Positions 1,729 through 40,482 of a stretch of DNA of 64,000 nt are shown here, one piece after another. The translations under genes were made by a program, and so were the position numbers. Below the pieces are notes generated by a model, which made no database searches, had not been told where the DNA came from, and was given only the letters and a program-made list of their open reading frames with translations. Where the stretch lies: the NCBI RefSeq assembly GCF_000263715.2, contig NZ_CM001514.1:4033674-4097673 (forward strand), written 5' to 3'. Each line of letters begins with the position of its first letter. Within the stretch, counting starts at the first letter, position 1. Origin of the DNA: Pseudomonas synxantha BG33R. GTDB lineage: Bacteria; Pseudomonadota; Gammaproteobacteria; Pseudomonadales; Pseudomonadaceae.

Positions 1729-4700
1729 TCAGATCCTGCGGCGGCGGTTGAGGGCGGGAATGGCGGTTTGCGGCACTTCAACGCGCTGGACCTGCGCCAC
1801 GGTTCTGGCGGCGAGTTGCGCCAGGGTTGGCTGGCTGAACAAGGTGCGTGCGTCCACTTCCAGCCCGGCCTTGCGCAGGCGGGCCACCAGGTTGACTGCC
1901 AGCAGCGAGTGCCCGCCCAGTTCGAAGAAGTGGTCGTGGCGCCCTACCCGCTCCAGTTTCAGCACGTCGGCCCAGATGCCGGACATCAAGGTTTCCACTT
2001 CGCCCTGGGGCGCTTCGTAGGCACGGCTGAGCACCGCGTCCAGGCCCGGCTCCGGCAGGGCCTTGCGGTCGAGTTTGCCGGCAGGGTTCAGGGGCAGTGC
2101 GTCGAGTTGTACAAAGGCGGCCGGCACCATGACTTCCGGCAGTTGCTCCAGCACATGGGCGCGCAAGTCTTCCAGGCTCGGCGCCTGGCCGCGCAGGGTG
2201 AAGTAGGCGACCAGGCGCTCATCGCGAATCAGTACCGCCACTTCACGCAGCGCCGGGTGTGCACTCAGGCGCGCTTCGATTTCGCCCAACTCCAGGCGCA
2301 CGCCGCGCAGTTTGACCTGGAAGTCATTGCGCCCGAGGAATTCCAGATTGCCGTCCGGCAGGTAGCGCACCAGGTCGCCCGTGCGATACAGGCGGTCACC
2401 GGCGACGAAGGGGCTGTCGATAAACCGCTCGGCAGTCATCTGCTCCAACCCCAGGTAGCCGCGGGCTACTCCCACACCACCGATATGCAGTTGACCGCTG
2501 ATGCCTATGGGGACCGGTGCGTCATGGGCGTCCAATACGTACAGGCGGGTATTGTTGATCGGCCGGCCAATCGGCAGTTGCACCGCGGGTACCGGCGCGC
2601 CGGGCTCGAGGGTCCAGGCGCTGCTGTCGACCGTAGCCTCGGTAGGGCCGTAGACGTTGTGCAAGCGCACCTTGGGCAAGCGCGCCTGCACGCCACGGGC
2701 CAGGGCTTCGGTCAGTTCGCCGCCGCCGCACAACACATCGGTGAGGCTGGTGCACAGCGCCGACTCGTCCAGCTCAAGAAACTGCTGCAACATCGCCGGC
2801 ACAAACTTGATCACGCTGATGTGCTGCTCGCGAATCAACTGGGCCAGGTACGCAGGTTCACGATGACCATCGGGCCGCGCCAGCACCAGGCGCATACCGT
2901 TGCTCAATGGCCAGAACAGTTCCCACACCGAACCGTCAAAGCTGAATGGCGCGCGCTGCAACAAGGCGCCGCCTGCGGCGTCGGGGCACAATTGCGAGCC
3001 CCAGTGCAGCAGGTTACCCAGGCCGCGATGTTCGATCATCACGCCCTTGGGGATGCCGGTGGAGCCCGAGGTGTACATCACGTAAGCCAGGTTGGCGATG
3101 CTCAAACCCGGTACCGACGGATTGTCGGCCGGCGCCTGGCTCCAGGTGCAGTGGTCGAAGTCGATCACGGGGATTGCAACCTCGCCCGGCACTTCGCGGG
3201 TAGCGCCGTGTACCAGCAGCGCCACCGGCTGGCTGTCGGCGAGCATGTAGGCCAGGCGTTCGCGTGGGTAGCTCGGGTCGAGGGGCACATAGGCACCGCC
3301 CGCCTTGAGAATGGCCAATAACCCCACCACCAGCTCCAACCCGCGCTCCACACACAGTGCCACCCGCGAGTCGGGCTCTACGCCATGCTCGCGCAGATGA
3401 AAGGCCAGTTGGTTGGCGCGTTCGTTGAGTTCGCGATAGGTCAATTGCTGCTCGCCGGCCTGCACCGCGATGGCATCTGGAATGTCCCGCGCATGGGCTT
3501 CGAACAGCGCCTGGACAGTGAGGGTTTGCGGGTAGTCCGTGGCGGTGGCGTTGAAGCCTGACAACTGGGTGTGCAACTCGCTGGCGGGCAACACCTGTAT
3601 GTCGCGAAGCGGCATTTTCGGCGCCTGCTCAAGCGCATCCACCAGGCCATTGAGCACCGTGTCGAGGTAGCTCAGCACCCGCTCGGCACCCACGGTGCGC
3701 GGCGCCTTGGCCTTGAGCCGGAAACCGCTGGCCACGTCATCCACCGTCAACATCAGCGGGTAACTGAGGATGTCTTCACTGTTGAGCAAGGCCATGCCCG
3801 GTACCAGTTTCAGTTCAAGATCGGCCGAGGTGTGGCGGTAATTGAGCAGACTGTTGAACAACGGTGACACGCCGCTGCAACGCTGGGCCAACGCCAGGGA
3901 GGCTTGTTCATGTGCGAGCAAGGCGCTCAGTTGTGTGTGGGTGTCGTGCAGTGCATCCACCACGTTTTGCCCGACCAGGCGCAGGCGCAGCGGCAAGGTG
4001 TTGATGAACATGCCCAACGCCCGCTCGGCACCCTCGCCGGCTTGCAAGCGGCCAAGCAGTACGGTGCCGAACACCACATCGTCGCGGCTCGCCACCCGGC
4101 TGAGCACCTGGGCCCAGGCCAGGTGGAACAGGCTCGCGGCGCTCACGCCAAGAGCGCGGGCCTGGCTGCGCAGGCGCAGGTTGAGCGCGTCACTGAGCAG
4201 GCGTTCGGCTTCTTCGGTCTCGGCACGCTTGGCCTGGCGCTCCTGCACGCCAAACGCCAGGGTCGGCTCGTCCACCTCTGCCAACTGCTGGCGAAAGAAC
4301 GCCTCGTGCGCAGCCTGGCGCACGGCTGATCGGGCTTGCGCCACCACATTGCGGTACGGCACCGGCACGGGCAATTGCGCCTGTTGGCCGAGCAGATGGG
4401 CGCGGATCTCGTCCACCAACAGGGTGGTCGAAGTGGCATCGTTGACCAAGTGATGAAAGCGCAGCCTGGCGATCCAGCGCTGATGGTGAGGTTCTTCGGC
4501 GTAGTCCAGGGCCATCAGCGGCGCCTGGCGCAAGTCCAGCGGTTGAGCCGGCTCGCGCAGCGGTTGGACCCGCAACCGCGCTTTTCGCCACACCACCTGC
4601 ATCGGTTGTTCAAGGGCATCCCACACCAGGCTGGTGCGCAGGATGTCATGGCGGTCGATCACTTGTTGCAGGGCGTGGGCGAAGGCATCCAGTTGCTCGC

Positions 4701-7700
4701 GGCGCGCAAAGCTGAACAAAGCCTGTTGCTGATACGGGTCGTGCGCATCGGTGATGTGGTGGTAAAGCAAGCCTTCCTGCAACGGCGCCAGCGGGTAGAT
4801 TTCCTGCACATTCGCTGCCCCACCAGGGATGCTTGCGACAATGCGGTCGAGGCTGGCTTGATCCAGCTCGGCCAGGGCGAGCAGATCAGGGGTGATATGC
4901 GTACAGCCCGGCGGAATTCGATTGCCTGGCACCGCCATTTCAGTACCGCCACACGCCGCTGCCAGCGCCGCCAACGTTGGCTGGCCGAACAGCACCTGCA
5001 CATCGGCACGCAGGCCGGCCTGGCGCATGCGCTGCACCAGTTGCACCGCCAACAGCGAATGCCCGCCCAACTCGAAGAAATGGTCGTGGCGCCCTACTTG
5101 CTGCACGTGCAGCAACTCGGCCCAGATCTGCGCAAGGGTAGCTTCCACACCGGCCTGCGCTGCTTCGAAGCGGCGAGTGACAAAGGCTTCCTGGCTGGGT
5201 GCGGGCAAGGCTTTGCGGTCGAGCTTGCCATTGGCGGTCAGGGGCAACGCCTCAAGGCGGACATAGGCCGCCGGCACCATATAGTCAGGTAACGAGGCCT
5301 GCAGATGGGCGCGCAGGGTTTGAATCTCGACTGGCTCACGCGGGATAAACCAGGCCAGCAATTGCCCTTGGCGAAACTGCACTACCGCGTCCTTGATCGC
5401 CGGGTGGGCGGCCAGGGCCGATTCGATTTCCCCCAGCTCGATGCGTACACCGCGGATTTTTACCTGGTCGTCGTTGCGCCCCAGGTACTCAAGATTGCCG
5501 TCCGACAGCCAGCGCGCCAGATCGCCGGTGCGGTACATACGCGCGCCGTTGAAAGGATCGTCCAGGAAGCGTTCGGCATTCAGTTCAGGACGGTTAAGAT
5601 AACCCCGCGCCACGCCCTTGCCGCCCACATACAACTCCCCCACTGCGCCAATCGGCACCGGGCGTTGTTGCGCATCCAGCAGATAAACCTGGGCGTTGGC
5701 GACCGGCGCGCCGATATGCAGCGGCTGGCCCACCTCAACGGCTCCAGAGGTGGCAACCACGGTGGCTTCGGTAGGGCCGTAGTTGTTGATCAGTTCAAAT
5801 GTCTGCGCCTGGGTGAACGTGCGCAGGCGATCGCCGCCAATCAGCAAGGTGCGCAAGGTGGGATGCCCACGCTGCTGGCTGAAGGCGTATTCGGCCACAG
5901 GCGTGGGCAGGAAACACACGTCCAGTGGCTGCGCGCGCCACCAGTCGAGCAACGCATCGATATTTTCCGCGCCGTCGTGCGCCGGTGGCAGGTGCAGCGT
6001 TGCACCCACGCATAACGCCGGCCAGACTTCCCAGGCCATGGCATCAAAACCAAAGCCGGCGACGCTGGCGGTATGGCTGCCCGCGTGCAGGTCGAACGCC
6101 CGGCAGTGCCAGTCCACCAGGTTCGATACGCTGTGGTGCTCCACCATCACGCCCTTGGGCAAGCCGGTGGAGCCGGAGGTGTAAATCACATAGGCCAGGT
6201 TCGACGGCGAGACCGCAACCTCGGGGTTACTGTCGATGTGCGAGGTGACCTGCTCCAGCACGACCACTGGCACCGTGGAGACAGGCAAGCGCTGGCGCAA
6301 ATCCTGTTGGGTCAGGATTGCCATAGGCGCACTGTCTTGCAGCAGGTAGTCGAGGCGTTCAGCCGGATGGGCCGGATCCAGCGGCACGTAGCAGGCGCCG
6401 GATTTGAGCACTGCCAACAACCCCGCCAATGTGTCCAGCCCGCGTCGGGCCAGCACGGCCACGCGATCATCCGGCTGTACGCCGTGTGCCAATAGTTGAT
6501 GCGCCAGGGCATTGGCCTGACGGTTGAGGTGGGCGTAGGTCAGCTGATGGCCCTGATACACCGCGGCTATGGCGTCGGGCGTGTGTGCGGCTTGCGCTTC
6601 AATCCGCCGGTGCAAGGTTTGCGGCAGTGCGTTGGGCTGCACGGTGGCGTTCCAGTGCAGCAGCCGAGCCTGAGCTTCAGGCGCCAGCATGGAAAACTCA
6701 CCGACCGGCAACGAGGGGTCTTCCAGCCCTTGCTCCAATAGCCAGGTGAAGCCGCGCGCCATCGCCTGGACTTCGTCGTGCTGGAAGTACGCCTCGTTGT
6801 AGACGCAATGCAGCCACGCGCTGTCCTGGTAGCGGTTGCTGCGCAGGTGAATGGCGATCGGCAATGCCTCATGGTGGTTGGACACCTTGATGGCACGCGC
6901 CTGCACCTGACCAAAACGCAGGTCATGGTCGTCCTGCTCGAACGACACCGACAGGTCGAACAACTGCCCGCGATCGGTTCGTCGCAGGCCCAGCTCACGG
7001 TTCATCTCGCTTAACGGGAAGCGCTGATGGCGGAAATCCTGCTTGAGCTGATCGCGTATGCCGCGCACCAGCTCACCAAAAGGCAACCCTTCGCTGAACT
7101 GAAAACGCACCGCACTGACCTGGGCAAACATGCCGACGGTGGCGCGAAAACGCGCGTTGGAGCGGTTGAGAATCGGCAGCCCCACCACCCATTCCCGGCG
7201 TTGACTGGTGCGGGTGAAATACACATACATCGCCGCCAGCAACACATGAAAAGCCGACGCCTGGCAGCGGTTGGCGACCTGCTCCATACGGTTGAGCAGC
7301 GCCACCGCAAACCCTTCCAGGAAGGTGTTGCTCGACGCCTTGGTGGTTTGCTTGGGCGTCAGCAGCGGCTCGGGCAGTACCTGGAACTTGTCCAGCCAAT
7401 AGTCGCGGTCACGGGCGTAACGGGCCGAGTGCAGGTAGTGCTGGTCGGTGTCGATAAAGTCGATATAGGACGGTGCGAACGGCTCCACGTGCCGGCCCTG
7501 CTCCAGGGCGGTGTACAACTGCGCGAGGGATTGCAGCAACTGGCCGAAGCCCCAACCGTCGAGAATCAGGTGGTGGGCCTGGGTACCGAGGCGGTAGTGG
7601 TCATCATCAAGTTTGACCAGAAAAAACCGCCACAACGGTTCGCCGTGCATGGCATAGGGCCGGGCCATTTGCGCCTGCATCAAGGCTTGCGTCGCCGCGG

Positions 7701-33848: not shown

Positions 33849-34733
33849 TTACGCCAACTGAAATGCCGGATGTTCGCGCAACGCGGTGACGCAGTAGTCG
33901 ACAAAACTGCGCACGCGCATCGGCGCATGGCGGCCTTCGCGGTAGATCACATGCACCGGCAGCGGCGGCATTTCAAAGGCCGGCAAGACACGACGCAGTT
34001 GGCCATTTATGAGGTGATCATGAACCGGATAACTGAGGCAACGAATCACCCCCGCGCCCTGCACCGCCGCATTGATCGCGCCTTGGACCGTGGCGCAACT
34101 GAGGCGGGCGCGGGCGTTGAGGGTGTAATGCAGGAAATCCCATCGCAGCGCTTCGGCGCTGGCAATCAGATGATGTTGCTTGAGGTCGGCCGGATGCCGG
34201 GGCTCGCCTTTGGCCGCCAAATACGTGGGGCTGGCGCACAGCAGGGTGCGCACCTGGCCGACCTGCCGTGCAATCAGCGACGAGTTGGGCAGCTCACCCA
34301 CCCACACCGCCACGTCAAACCCCTCTTCGTGCAGGTTGGGGTAATAGTCGTGGTAGTTAGCAGTGACACGCACCGCCGGATAGCGATCCATGTAGCCGGC
34401 CAGCAATGGCGCCATGACATAGCGACTGAACAACAACGGCAGGCATATCCGCAGGTTGCCCTGGGCGTGCACATGGGCGCCGTTGGCCGAGGCTTCGGCC
34501 GCATCCACCGCTGCCAGCAGGCGTACACAGTCGGCAAGATAAGCCTGGCCTGCATCGGTGAGGTTGACCCCGCGTGTGCTGCGCTGCAGCAACACCACCC
34601 GCAGGCGTGCCTCCAGGCGCGCAACCGCACGTACCAGGGTCGGGCCGGAGACCTGGGCACGGCGTGCCGCCGACGCCAGGCTGGGTTGCCCGGCCAGCGC
34701 GACAAACAGCTGCATATCGCGAAAGCGCTCCAT
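33849..34733 (-). CDS. LysR-family regulator (second of a coupled pair)
   Basis: A 294-residue LysR regulator. The N-terminal winged helix-turn-helix (about 5-60: LASAARRAQVSGPTLVRAVARLEARL) is followed by a substrate-binding domain. The ATG overlaps the TGA of the upstream LysR gene (ATGA), so the two are translated as a coupled pair. The proteins are clear paralogues along their whole length but diverged. Its helix-turn-helix has GPTLVRAVARLE instead of the more usual PPSVTRAIAAME, so DNA specificity probably differs. Target unknown. Confidence 0.88.
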   Translation of the reverse strand: MERFRDMQLFVALAGQPSLASAARRAQVSGPTLVRAVARLEARLRVVLLQRSTRGVNLTDAGQAYLADCVRLLAAVDAAEASANGAHVHAQGNLRICLPLLFSRYVMAPLLAGYMDRYPAVRVTANYHDYYPNLHEEGFDVAVWVGELPNSSLIARQVGQVRTLLCASPTYLAAKGEPRHPADLKQHHLIASAEALRWDFLHYTLNARARLSCATVQGAINAAVQGAGVIRCLSYPVHDHLINGQLRRVLPAFEMPPLPVHVIYREGRHAPMRVRSFVDYCVTALREHPAFQLA

Positions 34734-35653
34734 CAGGTGCGCCGCTTCGTCGCCGGGTTCAGGGCCGGGTCCTGCCCGAGGCGATGGCTTAAGAAATCCA
34801 CAAAGGTATTGACCTTGGCCGGTATGCGACCGTTTTGCTGGAACACCACGTGGATCGGCAGCGGCGCCGGTTCGAAAGCCTCCAGCACCAGCTCCAGCTC
34901 ACCCGCCGCCACCGCTGCCGCCACCTGATAGGACAGCACCCGCGTCATGCCCCAGCCCAGCCGCGCCAGGTTGATCGCGGCATTATTGGCCGTGACGATC
35001 AGGCGTGGCTCAATGGGTACCTTGAGTGGCCGCCCGGCGTCGACGAACGTCCATTCACTGACCAGTTGGCTGGACGATGAGGAGACGATCCTGGCTTCCC
35101 GCAATTGCTCAGGCCGCTGCGGGCGCCCATGTTGGTCCAGATAAGCCGGCGATGCGCACACCACCCGGCGCACTTCGCCGACCTTGATCGCCTGCTGCCC
35201 GGGTTCGTGCAGATGGCCGATACGCACCGCTACATCGACGCCTTCATCGGCCATATTGACCACACGGTCGACCAGCAAGGCACTGATGTTCACCAGGGGG
35301 AACTGGTCCAGGTACTCCCCCAGCACAGGCGCCACATACAGCTCGCCAAACAGCACCGGTGCGGTCACTGTCAGGTGACCGCCGGGGATGGAGTAACTGC
35401 CCGCTGCCGCTTCCTCGGCCTCTTCCAATTCGGCGAGGATGCGCCGGCAATCTTCCAGGTAACGCTGGCCGGCTTCGGTCAGGTGCAGGCTGCGCGTGGT
35501 GCGCGCCAGCAGTTGCGTACCGATGCGCTGCTCCATAGCGGCAATGGCGCGGGTCACGCTGGGTGGCGAGGTCTTCAGGCGGCGCGCAGCAGCGGCAAAC
35601 CCCTCCTCCTCGGCCACCGCCAGGAACACCTGCATTTCATGAAATCGGTCCAT
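34733..35653 (-). CDS. LysR-family regulator (first of a coupled pair)
   Basis: A 306-residue LysR regulator with helix-turn-helix at about 17-47 (FAAAARRLKTSPPSVTRAIAAMEQRIGTQLLARTTRSLHLTEAG) and effector domain to residue 290. The ATG at 35653 (MDRFHEMQVF) follows AAGGG; upstream in-frame sequence lacks family pattern. It is separated by only 16 bases from the GST gene upstream on the same strand. GST-LysR-LysR therefore look like one leftward transcription unit. Confidence 0.88.
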   Translation of the reverse strand: MDRFHEMQVFLAVAEEEGFAAAARRLKTSPPSVTRAIAAMEQRIGTQLLARTTRSLHLTEAGQRYLEDCRRILAELEEAEEAAAGSYSIPGGHLTVTAPVLFGELYVAPVLGEYLDQFPLVNISALLVDRVVNMADEGVDVAVRIGHLHEPGQQAIKVGEVRRVVCASPAYLDQHGRPQRPEQLREARIVSSSSSQLVSEWTFVDAGRPLKVPIEPRLIVTANNAAINLARLGWGMTRVLSYQVAAAVAAGELELVLEAFEPAPLPIHVVFQQNGRIPAKVNTFVDFLSHRLGQDPALNPATKRRT

Positions 35654-35669
35654 CGGCATCCCTTGATCG

Positions 35670-36296
35670 TTACTGTGATTGCAGCCCCACCGCCGTGCGC
35701 GGCATAGCGATAAACCCCGGCAAGGCTTCGATACTGGCAAGCCAGGCACGCACCTCAGGGTAGTCGGCCAGCGACACGTTGCCTTCCGGCGCATGGGCCA
35801 CGTAGGTGTAGAACGCGATATCGGCAATGCTTGGCTGATCGCTGGCCAGAAAGCGGCTCTCGCCCAGCTGCTGCTCCATCACGTTCAGCAGGGCATAGGC
35901 TCGGTTGATCGCGCTGACAGTGTCCACCTCGGCGCCAAACACCGTGGCCAAGCGCGCCGTGGCGGGCCCAGCATGGAGTTGACCAGCGGCGGCTGAGAGC
36001 CAGCGTTGGACCCGCGCTTGCCCGATGGGGTCGCTTGGCAACCACTGCCCTTTGCCATAGGTACTGGCAAGGTAGACCAGAATCGCATTGGAGTCGGCCA
36101 GCACAGTGCCGGCGTCGTCGATCACCGGCACCTGTCCGAAGCTGTTGAAGTTGGCGATGAACGCAGGTGCTTTGTGAGCGCCTTGTTTGAGGTCCACGAG
36201 GATGAATTCAGTCGGCAGATCCAACAGGGACAACATCAGCTCGACTCTGTGGGAGTGGCCAGACAAGGGAAAACCATACAGTTTGATAGCAGGCAT
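35670..36296 (-). CDS. Glutathione S-transferase family protein
   Basis: A 208-residue GST. The thioredoxin-like N-domain has KLYGFPLSGHSHRVELML (Ser in the position of the GSH-activating residue), FGQVPVIDDAGTVLADSNAILVYLA (cis-proline and the gamma-glutamyl-binding DSNAI). The helical C-domain contains PSIADIAFYTYVAHA, the N-capping box. It conjugates or otherwise uses glutathione on an unknown electrophile. The ATG follows GGAG. It marks the last gene of typical composition before the AT-rich island. Confidence 0.9.
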   Translation of the reverse strand: MPAIKLYGFPLSGHSHRVELMLSLLDLPTEFILVDLKQGAHKAPAFIANFNSFGQVPVIDDAGTVLADSNAILVYLASTYGKGQWLPSDPIGQARVQRWLSAAAGQLHAGPATARLATVFGAEVDTVSAINRAYALLNVMEQQLGESRFLASDQPSIADIAFYTYVAHAPEGNVSLADYPEVRAWLASIEALPGFIAMPRTAVGLQSQ

Positions 36297-36436
36297 GAAA
36301 GACTCCAGATCGTTGTCGACCGAGTATTCGCGTCGAGGGAAGCGATCTTCTTATGGGCAACCCTGCGATGGAATCACCAGATTGTGCAATCCAGCATTTC
36401 ACAGAATGAAACAATGAGGTGATCCCTGGCGAACGG

Positions 36437-37684
36437 CTACCTCTCCGCCAGATAAGCCCCCTGCCATTCAAGTATGCGAATCTGGTGGTAATCTGCCTCG
36501 AGCACGGCGGGGTCTTCATGTACCAGATACACCGTGCCCGGCTGACTGAAAACATCCTGCGTCACGCCGATCTGCTGGCCGTCCTCAACGTAAAACACTG
36601 CTTCGAAAAACGACTCAAGCTTGAGTAACTCCCTCAAGAACCCATCTTTTTCAAAACGCCCCTCTGAGCGGTTTATCAAGCAAACATTGTAGGTATGTTG
36701 CAGACGCTGATAATTGATCTTCCTCGCCAGTTGTTGTTCAAATAACTCAGGCTGCATGAGGGATAAAACCACAGCATCGATCTGACCAAGGCCAGTAGTT
36801 ACCTTTGAAACCCCAGGCCGAAGAATGCCGTCAGTGCGGGCAGCAATTTCCACCAGTTTCGGACCGTCTTCAGTAAACATAATCTCCGCATGGCTAGGCC
36901 CATTTCGGATCCCCAGGCACTGCACCACTGCTCGTGTGTATTGGACCAGAATCGGATAAACCATCGAATCGGGCCCAATCAGTTCGTCAATGTCATAGAG
37001 TACGCCGCCGGTCGGCGTTCGCTGCTTTCGATAACGGACGACTTCAGTGACGAGTTGTTGCCCGTCGAGCGATACCATGTTCACCACATACTCCAGTCCC
37101 GCCAGGTATTCCTGAATCAGGACCCGCGTGTTAGGTATATTTAGCTTGTTGGTCGTTCCTAACAGGCGCTCCATAGCAGCTTTGCACGCGCACATATCCT
37201 CGCAAATAGACACCCCATCGGCGCCTGCGCTCTCGAGGGGTTTGATGACCACAGGAAAACGTCCGTGTTCATCGATCCACTCTTGTGCAGGACGCCAACT
37301 ATCAGTAATGAACTGCCTTGCGGCCGGCAACTGCGCCTGGGTAATGCAATGGATCATTTCGTACTTGTTTCGACGTGCGTTAGTTTTGTCGAAATCATTG
37401 CGATAAGGCAGCTGCAGTTGCTCATTCAGCTCGTCAGCCAGAAGCACACCCGTTTCTGCACCCGCGAGGATGAACTGTGGCATGAAGCGTTGGACTTCAG
37501 CCAAGGTCATTCCAAAATCGCTATTGACGATCATCTGCTCATAAAGCGTGCAATCAAAACCTTGATAATAATAGCCGTCCAGTGTTGCTGATGAAGCCAC
37601 ATGCACCAGCACGCAGCCATCGTCGTTCAATTGCTTCGCTAAAAATTTACCCGATGAGAACCCATCGACTATCACAATTTTCAT
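36437..37684 (-). CDS. ATP-grasp carboxylate-amine ligase of the AT-rich mini-cluster
   Basis: A 415-residue ATP-grasp enzyme of the amino-acid ligase type. A Rossmann-like N-domain (MKIVIVDGFSSGKFLAKQL) is followed by the grasp. It has FPVVIKPLESAGADGVSI with the ATP lysine (K148), IQEYLAGLEYVVNMV (E192), and the Mg/ATP residues in SHAEIMF (E267) and KLVEIAARTDG (E279, R283). Such enzymes join a carboxylic acid to an amine through an acyl phosphate, often making dipeptides. Its ATG overlaps the stop of the exporter gene (ATGA). It is the last gene of a PLP enzyme-PRTase-exporter-ligase operon; strongly AT-biased codon use suggests transfer. Substrates unknown. Confidence 0.85.
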   Translation of the reverse strand: MKIVIVDGFSSGKFLAKQLNDDGCVLVHVASSATLDGYYYQGFDCTLYEQMIVNSDFGMTLAEVQRFMPQFILAGAETGVLLADELNEQLQLPYRNDFDKTNARRNKYEMIHCITQAQLPAARQFITDSWRPAQEWIDEHGRFPVVIKPLESAGADGVSICEDMCACKAAMERLLGTTNKLNIPNTRVLIQEYLAGLEYVVNMVSLDGQQLVTEVVRYRKQRTPTGGVLYDIDELIGPDSMVYPILVQYTRAVVQCLGIRNGPSHAEIMFTEDGPKLVEIAARTDGILRPGVSKVTTGLGQIDAVVLSLMQPELFEQQLARKINYQRLQHTYNVCLINRSEGRFEKDGFLRELLKLESFFEAVFYVEDGQQIGVTQDVFSQPGTVYLVHEDPAVLEADYHQIRILEWQGAYLAER

Positions 37685-38598
37685 ACGATCTCCCGTTTCA
37701 GCGCATGCAACGACCTGAACGACAGCAAAAAGATGATGACTGTTACGGCTGAGAGGCTGGCTACAGAAAACCCAACTCTCGAATCCAGGTACTGGAACAA
37801 AAAAACGAACACAGGAAGCGTCAGCAATACCAGGGAAACGTGAATAGGCGTGAGGTAATAGATGGTTTTCTGAATCAGGTAAATCGGCAGCAAATGTCCG
37901 GCTATCACCAAGATAGCCATAGGCAGAACCCATCCACTATCGAGTAAAAAGCTGCCTCCTGTAGCAGGAATCGCAACGGCACAGACACCCACCATCGCGA
38001 TGTTTCTGACACCCAAAATCTCGTAGACCGACCATTGACGAGCGAACATCTCTTTAGAAAAAACCGTGTACATGACCGTGCCCAACGCGCACGTCAATAC
38101 GCTAACGATACCGAGCACCCGCTGCACAGCGGTGGTGGTGACTACACCGCTGTCCCCCGCAAGGGAATTGAACAACATCATCGCTACCGAGATGAGCACC
38201 AGCCATGAAACCACCGCATCGACTACGGCCACCTTCACGCTACGATTGGTCAGCAGGGAGACAATCAACGTGAGTGCAGGGCCGCAGGCTACGGAGGCGA
38301 CTCCCACTACTGCTGGCTCCAGATACCGGAGTGCGTAAAACAACCCGCCCCAATTGCACAGAACCGCAAGATTGATGATAACGATCAATCGCCATTGGGT
38401 TCTGAGCTTTGACCACAATGAATTGGGATTTCGATAAACCGCCCAAACACCAAAGACACAGGCTGACGTTGTAAAACAATAAAAAATAACGTTCAACGTG
38501 CTGATCGACTGCGTGACCAACGCAACATAAACATCGAATGCCGCACTGATCAAGCAAAACACCAAGCCGATAATTAACCCGGTTCGTTGCATCAACAT
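37681..38598 (-). CDS. EamA/DMT-superfamily exporter
   Basis: A 305-residue membrane protein with ten hydrophobic segments in two five-segment repeats, as in EamA-type drug/metabolite transporters. Short basic loops (YRNPNSLWSKLRTQWR near 55-70) separate the segments. It ends SFRSLHALKREIV. The ATG at 38598 is 22 bases after the phosphoribosyltransferase stop, behind GGTGG; its stop overlaps the ligase start. In an operon of small-molecule enzymes it most likely exports the product (inferred). AT-rich like its neighbours. Confidence 0.82.
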   Translation of the reverse strand: MLMQRTGLIIGLVFCLISAAFDVYVALVTQSISTLNVIFYCFTTSACVFGVWAVYRNPNSLWSKLRTQWRLIVIINLAVLCNWGGLFYALRYLEPAVVGVASVACGPALTLIVSLLTNRSVKVAVVDAVVSWLVLISVAMMLFNSLAGDSGVVTTTAVQRVLGIVSVLTCALGTVMYTVFSKEMFARQWSVYEILGVRNIAMVGVCAVAIPATGGSFLLDSGWVLPMAILVIAGHLLPIYLIQKTIYYLTPIHVSLVLLTLPVFVFLFQYLDSRVGFSVASLSAVTVIIFLLSFRSLHALKREIV

Positions 38599-38620
38599 TT
38601 AGCCACCCGCGCGCGCATTT

Positions 38621-39181
38621 TCATTCAACCGTTACTCGATCTTCGCTCACCAACACTTTCAAAATAGTTTTAACGGTAATCCCAGTCGCACCTACTACAT
38701 TCTCAACCCCAAAATTCCCAACCTTCTCTACAGCGCAGACAACATCTGCCACTTCACCACCCGCCCCTTTCACAGCGTCTACCAGCGCAATTACCGCACC
38801 GCCGGAACTTAGCGTATCGTCAATGATGATGACTCGATCGCCAACTTCGACGCCGTTGAGATACAACTGTCCCTTGTAGTATTCGGAGTCAATATCGACC
38901 ACTTGCTCATTGAAACCACCAAGACTGTAGGAATACCACCTGGCCATGGCTAAAGGTATACCCGTCAACAATGAGACCGTGGTTGCCAACGCGGCCCCCT
39001 TATCTTCCTCGGTGACAATTTTCGAAACGTCACGTTCCATGACTTTGATGATTTTATGCGCGACCTCAATTAAAACTTCCGGCCGCAAAGCAGGTATCTG
39101 ATCCGTAAACTCATTGACCGTAGTCAGAGATTTTCCAGATCTCACAACTTTAGCTTTTTTATAAATTTCTTCCAGCAACAT
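38621..39181 (-). CDS. Phosphoribosyltransferase, purine type
   Basis: A 186-residue type I phosphoribosyltransferase. The PRPP loop VIIIDDTLSSGGA spans about 118-130. A flexible-loop region near 81-100 and the preceding YKGQLYLNGVEVGDR resemble adenine and archaeal-type hypoxanthine enzymes. The ATG at 39181 (MLLEEIYKKAK) follows GAGGTG and overlaps the upstream PLP gene by 23 bases; further upstream in-frame sequence is overlap, not protein. It would move a base onto PRPP or run the reverse reaction. A salvage role is unlikely in this setting; a biosynthetic or self-protection role is inferred. Confidence 0.82.
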   Translation of the reverse strand: MLLEEIYKKAKVVRSGKSLTTVNEFTDQIPALRPEVLIEVAHKIIKVMERDVSKIVTEEDKGAALATTVSLLTGIPLAMARWYSYSLGGFNEQVVDIDSEYYKGQLYLNGVEVGDRVIIIDDTLSSGGAVIALVDAVKGAGGEVADVVCAVEKVGNFGVENVVGATGITVKTILKVLVSEDRVTVE

Positions 39182-40130
39182 GGCGCACCTCACTGTACTC
39201 AGGATAAAACCCATCCCAGCGACTCGCATACTTCCAAGAGCTATCAAAAAATAACGTGACTATGTTCTTGCATTTATGCGCTTGAACGATCTCGTCACAC
39301 ATCAGTAGATTGGCTCCGCAGGTTGGTCCAATGGGTATTTTTTCTGACGCGATGAAGTGCTTCATCCGAGCCCAAGCGTCGACATCATCAATCACTCGTA
39401 TTTCATCAACTAGACCGAAGTCTGTATTCGCTGATAAAACTCCTGCGCCCAAACCCATCAAATTGTGCGAGCGATGATTGAACGCCAAATTATTTCTTTG
39501 CGCAAACAGAGGCGCAGAGTTGCTAACCTCCAGCGCTATTGTTTTAATCCCACTGTACGTTTGCTTCAATACCTCAGCGATTCCAGAAAAAGTGCCGCCC
39601 GTACCGATTGAGCACACGAAGAAATCCGGCACGATATTTTGTGCACTCAACTGTTTCACGATTTCTTTCCCACAGCACCGCCAACTGTCTTTATTCAACA
39701 GGCTATTAGACTGATCCAGATAATAAAACTCTTCCGATGAGTTCTCGGATAGATACGCTTTTGCTTGGAGAACTGCTCCCGTCAAAAAAGACTCTTTTGG
39801 AGTCTCTACTATATCCGCCCCATAGGTACGTATTTGTGTTTTCCGCTCCTCGGTCATACCTTCAGGCATGAATATCTTTACGCCGTATCCCTTCAACCTG
39901 CCGATCCAAGCGAGTGCAGCCCCTCCGTTCCCAGTAGAACAGTCAATTAGCGTCATACCAGGTTTAAGGACGCCTGCCTTCTCCAATTTATTGATAATAT
40001 TTAAATAGGTACGATCCTTATGACTTCCCGATGGATTCAAGTACTCACACTTAGAGAAAACCCTATTTCCATTCACAGAAAGTGTTGCCAATTCGAGTAG
40101 CGGCGTATTACCAATATCTTTCAGCTCCAT
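39159..40130 (-). CDS. PLP-dependent cysteine synthase/CBS-fold enzyme
   Basis: A 323-residue fold-type II PLP enzyme. The Schiff-base lysine lies in NPSGSHKDR (K38). The substrate loop is STGNGG (65-70), where O-acetylserine sulfhydrylases have TSGNTG. The phosphate site is GTGGT (176-180), and the pyridine-nitrogen site is in PTCGAN (about 269-274). It would do beta-replacement or elimination on a serine-type amino acid to make a non-protein amino acid. I chose the ATG at 40130 because GAGG lies seven bases upstream; the ATG at 40136 is too close. First gene of the four-gene operon. Confidence 0.87.
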   Translation of the reverse strand: MELKDIGNTPLLELATLSVNGNRVFSKCEYLNPSGSHKDRTYLNIINKLEKAGVLKPGMTLIDCSTGNGGAALAWIGRLKGYGVKIFMPEGMTEERKTQIRTYGADIVETPKESFLTGAVLQAKAYLSENSSEEFYYLDQSNSLLNKDSWRCCGKEIVKQLSAQNIVPDFFVCSIGTGGTFSGIAEVLKQTYSGIKTIALEVSNSAPLFAQRNNLAFNHRSHNLMGLGAGVLSANTDFGLVDEIRVIDDVDAWARMKHFIASEKIPIGPTCGANLLMCDEIVQAHKCKNIVTLFFDSSWKYASRWDGFYPEYSEVRHVAGRNL

Positions 40131-40482
40131 TTCCATGCCTCAGCGACTCGTCAATGAATTCAGACGCTAGCAAATCATTTCGATAAATAATAGCTAGCCG
40201 AACGGATAGGTAATAGAAAACATTTGGCCACCTATCCATTAAGGGAAATGTATGTAGGAACGCCCCGACAACAGCAGGTAAACCACGTAATAACTAACAA
40301 TTTATTACGTACAAAAAAGACTTTTCGTACGAGACTCGCCACCTTCAATAGCAGTGCGCCCTGCCAAATCCCGTGGCCGCAATGGTGCGGCGCCCCCCTC
40401 AGACGAGTTTTCATTAAAAAATTCAAACTATCGCCCTCCCCATCGTTCACACCTTCACGTGCAACGTTAAGTAGGAGGCGAC
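40131..40482. other. AT-rich divergent gap between the mini-cluster and the aldo/keto reductase
   Basis: About 350 bases. The left half is AT-rich and should carry the promoter of the leftward PLP operon; composition returns to GC-rich near 40350. The right end holds AGGAGG for the reductase. No ORF with a ribosome site, palindrome or repeat stands out, and I cannot place a promoter with confidence. Confidence 0.5.

What the first reader, a model, noticed from the sequence alone, without database searches (positions are those of the whole stretch)
36437..40130. AT-rich four-gene operon PLP enzyme-phosphoribosyltransferase-exporter-ATP-grasp: candidate new antimetabolite pathway
Seen: four leftward genes, tightly coupled (overlaps of 23 and 4 bases, one gap of 22), much richer in A/T than flanking genes. 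Known: fold-type II PLP enzymes make beta-substituted alanines or diaminopropionate; ATP-grasp ligases make dipeptides; EamA proteins export amino-acid derivatives. The purine-type phosphoribosyltransferase is not expected in such sets. Inference: the product may be a small exported dipeptide containing a non-protein amino acid. The phosphoribosyltransferase may supply or remove a nucleobase-like group, for example in a heterocycle-linked alanine, or give self-protection. I know no characterised pathway with exactly these four genes.
Basis: partly seen in the sequence, partly recalled or inferred. Interest (0 to 1): 0.82.

Follow-up and report, generated by a model that had tools for sequence, protein, structure and literature searches.

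The report
Travelling gene set for exported dipeptide
A small set of four neighbouring genes, found in bacteria as far apart as Pseudomonas, Yersinia and Streptomyces, probably builds and exports a tiny two-part peptide from an unusual amino acid; its product is unknown, and a nucleobase-handling enzyme at its heart sets it apart from the known pathways it was compared with.

Summary
Four leftward genes overlap or nearly touch: a CysK-like PLP enzyme (PALP), a purine-type phosphoribosyltransferase (PRT), an EamA exporter and a DdaF/L-amino-acid-ligase-like ATP-grasp. They are 48.8% GC against 61.6% in the flanks, and a related genome has the flanks without the genes.

The set is a real, horizontally spread cassette. 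Of 29 loci from a PRT-seeded scan of 84,980 species, 25 hold all four genes (Pseudomonas, Photorhabdus, Yersinia, Streptomyces, Sorangium and others). In PALP-seeded searches of three samples, all 7 PALP carriers have the PRT beside it. In 10 of the 29 a fifth gene, yggS, joins. PALP and PRT are the core: they persist in two genomes without the ligase and are better conserved between phyla than ligase and exporter. ATP-grasp plus EamA recur elsewhere behind HalD-family genes.

Most likely PALP makes a beta-substituted alanine, the ATP-grasp ligates it, EamA exports the product, and the PRT handles a purine-like base on that route. Anatomy, spread and selection are shown; all chemistry is inferred. 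PALP is not the genome's cysteine synthase. Ten searches of an open-access library found no description.

The parts
39159..40136 (-). PALP: fold-type II PLP enzyme, CysK-like, Lys40 in HKDR, loop STGNGG where cysteine synthases have SGNTG
   Evidence: Pfam PF00291 202.6 bits; cysKM 212 bits against cut-off 344; loop compared with five paralogues of the same genome
38621..39181 (-). PRT: type I phosphoribosyltransferase of a purine-using family
   Evidence: NF009211 243.4 bits against cut-off 188 (scanned as the longer TTG-start ORF); PRPP loop and EEDKG invariant in 24 rows; AlphaFold model, mean pLDDT 88.9
37681..38598 (-). EamA/DMT-family exporter
   Evidence: PF00892 43.8 bits, cut-off 28.2
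36437..37684 (-). ATP-grasp ligase, dapdiamide synthase / L-amino acid ligase type
   Evidence: NF005543 496 bits against cut-off 302 (scanned as the 498-aa ORF); closest solved chain 30vh_A 'L-amino acid ligase' 205.6 bits
40137..40482 (.). A/T-rich stretch between the operon and the divergent aldo/keto reductase gene; presumed to hold the operon promoter (inferred)
   Evidence: sequence; the sigma-70 pattern scan found no site here
36295..40403 (.). stretch missing at the empty site of a related genome (L081: window 36294 and 40404 map to bases 8323 and 8482, with 158 bases between)

Best explanation
A horizontally acquired cassette for making and exporting a small peptide without an NRPS. 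PALP (CysK-like) makes a beta-substituted L-alanine from an activated serine. The PRT handles a purine-like base that is either the group joined to alanine or a by-product of making it. The ATP-grasp joins the amino acid to a second one, and EamA exports the result. Shown: gene content, linkage, spread, purifying selection, empty site. Inferred: every chemical step, and that the PRT belongs to synthesis rather than protection.
For: Four genes conserved together in 25 of 29 loci of Pseudomonadota, Streptomyces and Sorangium, diverging in step (Mantel r 0.76-0.98; 0 of 999 permutations as high). PALP-seeded searches: 3 of 298 Pseudomonas, 1 of 207 Enterobacterales and 3 of 199 Streptomyces genomes have PALP, and all 7 have PRT beside it. 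PALP and PRT stay adjacent though their order differs (PALP-PRT in Pseudomonadota, PRT-PALP in Streptomyces and Sorangium). Identity of the window's proteins to the six Streptomyces cassettes: PRT 51-54%, PALP 46-48%, ATP-grasp 34-36%, EamA 29-30%. In Marinomonas and Stutzerimonas, PALP+PRT+yggS occur with another EamA and no ATP-grasp match at E 1e-20. ATP-grasp+EamA recur behind HalD-family genes, whose known members halogenate free amino acids (recalled). The genome has its own CysK, a CysM-like gene and a xanthine PRTase. An APRT-type enzyme in a specialised pathway has precedent, AgmE of angustmycin (PMC8599513, passages).
Against: No product, assay or expression data. The 29 loci were found with the PRT, so its presence in them is by construction; the check with PALP rests on 7 carriers, of which 5 (G000, G278, G666, G667, G673) had already come in through PRT searches of the species-wide kind or as the query. 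In one carrier, G255, the PALP frame is interrupted. No phosphatase or serine-activating enzyme is in the set. PRTs normally run toward the nucleotide, which fits poorly with a route ending in an exported dipeptide. The ATP-grasp tree puts the Pseudomonadota cassette ligases and the Streptomyces/Sorangium ones in two groups (3 changes needed, 2 forced by starred branches, 0% of bootstrap trees with one; long-branch and composition warnings), so the ligase may have been recruited twice and products may differ.
Confidence: 0.5

Rival explanations
1. The PRT is self-protection, not synthesis: the exported amino-acid antimetabolite blocks purine or PRPP-using steps, and an extra purine PRT lets the producer get round the block by salvage.
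For: The best-matching families and solved relatives are purine PRTs; YggS, a PLP-binding family, could likewise guard PLP pools. Amino-acid antimetabolites of purine synthesis are known (alanosine, hadacidin, azaserine; recalled).
Against: The PRT is the best-conserved of the four proteins between the window and Streptomyces and lies beside all 7 PALP genes of the PALP-seeded searches; protection genes are often lost or swapped (general knowledge). No sensitivity data.
Confidence: 0.27
2. The product is a signal rather than a weapon: a dipeptide or amino acid exported for communication.
For: In Stutzerimonas the set lies next to luxR and luxI genes.
Against: Seen in 1 of 29 loci. No regulator is conserved with the set: the widest regulator family in the flanks, a LysR type, occurs in 8 loci of three genera, not at one place.
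Confidence: 0.1
3. Four ordinary housekeeping genes (cysteine synthase, purine salvage, amino-acid exporter, ligase) that happen to be neighbours.
For: Each protein belongs to a common superfamily.
Against: CysK and a CysM-like gene lie elsewhere in the genome, at 30% and 36% identity; this PALP is in only 3 of 298 Pseudomonas genomes; the set is conserved in 25 of 29 loci of three phyla.
Confidence: 0.04
4. The PRT is a non-catalytic PRPP sensor or partner that controls the PALP.
For: PRT-fold regulators exist (PurR, PyrR; recalled); the two genes overlap by 23 bases in the window.
Against: D121, D122, T123 and G127 of the PRPP loop and EEDKG (58-62) are invariant in the 24 PRTs of alignment A7, as expected of an active enzyme.
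Confidence: 0.09

Closest known systems
Dapdiamide / herbicolin-type pathway of Pantoea (Dda genes)
   Same: A PLP enzyme related to CysK makes an unusual amino acid and a DdaF-type ATP-grasp makes the peptide bond (pathway recalled; DdaF similarity).
   Different: DdaF model 231.8 bits against cut-off 840 and SbnA model 127 against 350, so neither enzyme passes as the dapdiamide one; no PRT is known there (recalled).
L-amino acid ligases (BacD, TabS, plu1440)
   Same: Same ATP-grasp family; the best solved relative is named 'L-amino acid ligase'. plu1440 of Photorhabdus makes Asn-X dipeptides (PMC6920838, passages).
   Different: Substrates of this one are unknown; the passages read do not mention a PALP-PRT pair. 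Whether plu1440 is itself the Photorhabdus member could not be tested.
HalD plus ATP-grasp plus EamA clusters
   Same: Same kinds of ligase and exporter side by side.
   Different: The front end is a HalD-family gene with a methyltransferase or desaturase gene, not PALP-PRT.
Angustmycin AgmE
   Same: An APRT-type enzyme recruited into a specialised pathway (PMC8599513, passages).
   Different: Makes a nucleoside; the six-enzyme route described there has a phosphatase and no amino-acid ligase.
Plant beta-substituted alanine synthases (willardiine, lupinic acid)
   Same: CysK relatives that join a nitrogen heterocycle to alanine (recalled; the willardiine paper was seen only in the listing).
   Different: Plant enzymes; no PRT or ligase partner known to me.

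Membership tests
Cysteine synthase CysK/CysM | score above the curated cut-offs (TIGR01136 344, TIGR01139 351) | tested here: not met
   212 and 203 bits; the genome's own CysK scores 434.8 for TIGR01139
Cysteine synthase CysK/CysM | SGNTG substrate loop | tested here: not met
   STGNGG, invariant in the 24 cassette PALPs aligned; CysK and the CysM-like paralogue have TSGNTG
2,3-diaminopropionate synthase SbnA | TIGR03945 cut-off 350 | tested here: not met
   127 bits
PRK12560 adenine phosphoribosyltransferase | NF009211 cut-off 188 | tested here: met
   243.4 bits
PRK12560 adenine phosphoribosyltransferase | transfer of phosphoribose to adenine | not testable with these tools
   needs an enzyme assay
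Dapdiamide A synthase DdaF | NF041595 cut-off 840 | tested here: not met
   231.8 bits
L-amino acid ligase (ATP-grasp) | sequence relative of a ligase of solved structure | tested here: met
   30vh_A, 205.6 bits over residues 2-407
L-amino acid ligase (ATP-grasp) | dipeptide formation from free amino acids | not testable with these tools
   needs an enzyme assay
NRPS-independent dipeptide cassette | amino-acid-making enzyme, ATP-grasp and exporter together in a conserved gene set | tested here: met
   25 of 29 loci; that they are one transcript is inferred from overlaps in the window
NRPS-independent dipeptide cassette | a dipeptide product | not testable with these tools
   needs metabolite analysis
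YggS family (fifth gene of some loci) | TIGR00044 cut-off 106 | tested here: met
   149, 139, 127 and 160 bits in Marinomonas, Stutzerimonas, S. niger and Pantoea; the six Streptomyces cassettes by tblastn; no such gene in the window's operon
Anti-phage defence | match to a PADLOC model | tested here: not met
   0 of 4 proteins

The most novel reading that the evidence does not exclude
A bacterial route to a nucleobase amino acid: PALP joins a purine-like base, handed over by or recovered through the dedicated PRT, to the beta-carbon of alanine, and the ATP-grasp turns it into an exported dipeptide. This would be a bacterial, NRPS-free nucleopeptide whose genes have spread across three phyla.
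Probability: 0.2. Interest if true: 0.85.

Novelty: new variant of a known kind. Interest (0 to 1): 0.62.

Why it matters
A compact, self-contained set shared by Pseudomonas, Photorhabdus, Yersinia and Streptomyces is a ready target for discovery of a new small exported compound. It also poses a clear chemical question: why does a CysK-like enzyme travel with a purine-type phosphoribosyltransferase? The set is small enough to express whole and to rebuild in vitro, so the question can be answered directly.

Tried and rejected
Housekeeping genes side by side by chance: rejected. Phage or defence cargo: no PADLOC match for 4 proteins; a scan of viral contigs with PRT patterns found 22 stretches, none a relative; no PRT match in phage records. 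Plasmids: PRT relatives only under 60% identity (10 records), PALP none at 1e-40, ATP-grasp one at 1e-60, Tistrella, in another setting. E. coli genomes: no match to the operon DNA. Riboswitch clue: none at gathering scores in 10 of the 29 loci, none in the window stretch. Literature: ten searches listed no paper that I recognised as describing the set; two of them returned nothing, and the library lacks most subscription papers. I first thought an E-Y pair in the PRT loop matched the catalytic E-Y of human APRT (recalled); the profile alignment with a solved APRT (4m0k) sets these residues two columns apart, so I make no claim. That Photorhabdus plu1440 is the cassette ligase could not be tested; a passage that calls the neighbouring locus tag plu1441 nikkomycin-related (PMC4070556) speaks mildly against it.

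PRT-like genes in other clusters (TrpF-PRT fusion; Haloferax) were looked at as guides to PRT function and decided nothing.
Full report
OBSERVATION. The four genes are there, leftward, at 36437-40136: PALP 39159-40136 (start perhaps at 40130), PRT 38621-39181, EamA 37681-38598, ATP-grasp 36437-37684. The cassette is 48.8% GC, 21 kb of flank 61.6%. The genome is a 6.3-Mb single contig; its genus sample includes Pseudomonas sp. JAI120 (G278 and L014 share a contig length), so I call it Pseudomonas.

FAMILIES. PALP: PF00291; the closest curated models are cysteine synthases, far below cut-off (212 of 344 bits). PRT: NF009211 above cut-off (243 against 188). EamA: PF00892. ATP-grasp: NF005543 above cut-off (496 against 302), dapdiamide synthase far below (232 of 840). 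The best solved relatives are: for the ATP-grasp 30vh_A, 'L-amino acid ligase', 205.6 bits; for PALP cysteine synthases; for PRT xanthine and adenine PRTases. The ATP-grasp reference used lacks the first residue. The PRT model has mean pLDDT 88.9 but could not be searched against solved folds.

NOT HOUSEKEEPING. The genome holds a CysK (434.8 bits, cut-off 351), a CysM-like gene (matched part only: 365 and 368 bits for the cysM models, cut-offs 394 and 413) and a xanthine PRTase. A separate adenine PRTase was not looked for. The cassette PALP differs from all five paralogues aligned in the substrate loop, STGNGG; its HK at the PLP lysine is shared by one paralogue, L053. Loop and HK are invariant in the 24 cassette PALPs aligned.

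SPREAD. A scan of one genome for each of 84,980 species (tool's figure), seeded with three PRTs and two peptide patterns, gave 29 loci; more distant members may be missed. All four genes lie within about 5 kb in 25 of 29: Pseudomonas, Photorhabdus, Yersinia, a record labelled Martelella, Streptomyces and Sorangium. The exceptions: Marinomonas and Stutzerimonas (PALP, PRT, yggS, another EamA, and no ATP-grasp match in the genome at 1e-20); S. niger (PRT and yggS only in the locus; its PRT departs from the conserved SEY and TGG stretches); Pantoea brenneri (PALP and the start of PRT at one contig end; a further part of PRT, yggS, EamA and ATP-grasp at the end of another contig of the same assembly). 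Of the other gene families in the 14-kb loci, yggS is the only one shared widely and at a fixed place; LysR, ABC-transporter, aldo/keto reductase and aminotransferase families turn up in two or three genera, and some families are only reading frames opposite the cassette genes. yggS is in 9 of the 29 loci plus the Pantoea genome.

CHECK FROM THE OTHER SIDE. Because that scan used the PRT, I searched with PALP too. Pseudomonas: 3 of 298 genomes carry it (E up to 1e-55), exactly the three with the PRT operon; a fourth genome has only a TrpF-fused PRT. Enterobacterales: 1 of 207, the genome the query came from. Streptomyces: 3 of 199, all three among the 4 of 246 with PRT in an earlier, larger draw; the fourth was not among the hits and may not have been drawn. 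So 7 of 7 PALP carriers have PRT beside it; 5 of the 7 had come in through PRT earlier as query or scan hit. In one carrier (G255, L008) the PALP frame is interrupted. The ATP-grasp is not so tied: 8 of 295 Enterobacterales have a relative at 1e-60, and only one shows other cassette genes of ours within its roughly 1.5-kb flanks apart from distant EamA matches in two.

HISTORY. The cassette proteins diverge in step: Mantel r 0.92-0.98 for 22 cassettes and 0.76-0.94 for the 15 of Pseudomonadota, 0 of 999 permutations as high (of 26 cassettes, window and 25 loci, I left out L014 and L020-L022 as near relatives of others kept). In those 15 the cassette's GC is 5 to 16 points below the flanks; in the 7 of Streptomyces and Sorangium it is within 2.4 points. 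A related Pseudomonas (L081) has both flanks with 158 bases between them and no cassette; in another (L080) other genes lie there. Pseudomonas cedrina has a C4 antisense RNA about 300 bases from the set, and Photorhabdus khanii a tRNA about 3 kb away; no viral contig or phage record matched. dN/dS is 0.05-0.14 for all four genes against L031 and L013.

MODULES. PRT and PALP keep 51-54% and 46-48% identity to the six Streptomyces members, ATP-grasp 34-36% and EamA 29-30%. A tree of 30 ATP-grasps puts the Pseudomonadota cassette ligases in one group (14 rows, 99/99) and the Streptomyces and Sorangium ones in another that also holds a non-cassette ligase (6 rows, 97/92); 3 changes of label are needed, 2 are forced by starred branches, and the program warns of long branches and uneven composition. 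ATP-grasp plus EamA also occur behind a HalD-family gene with a methyltransferase gene (L083; a similar set with split frames in L084, by eye) and behind HalD plus a desaturase gene in Tistrella. So PALP+PRT (+yggS) looks like a monomer-making unit and ATP-grasp+EamA like a ligate-and-export unit.

HOW IT MOST LIKELY WORKS. Inferred: PALP makes a beta-substituted alanine; the ATP-grasp adds a second amino acid; EamA exports. The PRT is of a purine-using family with its PRPP-site residues kept; its constancy beside PALP, in either gene order, argues for a role in synthesis, such as supplying or retrieving the base. Protection by purine salvage is the main rival. YggS may keep PLP balanced or act on the amino acid. 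None of this chemistry was tested.

NOVELTY. Ten full-text searches of the open library listed nothing that I recognised as this set. Single parts have precedents: L-amino acid ligases (PMC6920838, passages) and an APRT-type enzyme in angustmycin synthesis (PMC8599513, passages). The combination is a new variant of the known NRPS-free dipeptide cassettes.

Noticed in passing
L009 4361-11051 and L011 4572-11993: A separate cluster shared by a Pseudomonas and a Rhizobium phaseoli plasmid: luciferase-like oxygenase, isochorismatase-like, TrpD-like, a fusion of TrpF with a PRT 40% like ours, an MFS-like exporter and a UbiD-like enzyme (some named by eye). Product unknown to me.
   Followed up: partly
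L010 6419-10983: A Haloferax larsenii plasmid has a 44% identical PRT between prenyltransferase genes and a geranylgeranyl reductase gene.
   Followed up: no
L083 7050-10792; L084 5523-9308; L089 2636-7251: HalD-family genes (L084 by eye) beside ATP-grasp and EamA genes of the kinds seen here: candidate halogenated-peptide cassettes. In L084 the ATP-grasp and EamA frames are split.
   Followed up: partly
L032 7016-8753: luxR and luxI genes just downstream of the PALP-PRT-yggS-EamA genes in Stutzerimonas.
   Followed up: partly
L019-L022, about 4200-5610: Four Photorhabdus loci carry a second, decayed copy of the operon upstream: PALP or PRT remnants with a full-length EamA.
   Followed up: no
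L015 5653-5738: C4 antisense RNA (P4-phage type, recalled) next to the operon in Pseudomonas cedrina.
   Followed up: no
window 33849-35827: Two LysR-type regulator genes in a row beside a GST gene downstream of the operon; they also flank the empty site in L081.
   Followed up: no
L053 1501-2376 (own genome): Another cysteine-synthase-like gene with SHKAR at the lysine; its matched stretch scores below the cysteine-synthase cut-offs. Setting not examined.
   Followed up: no
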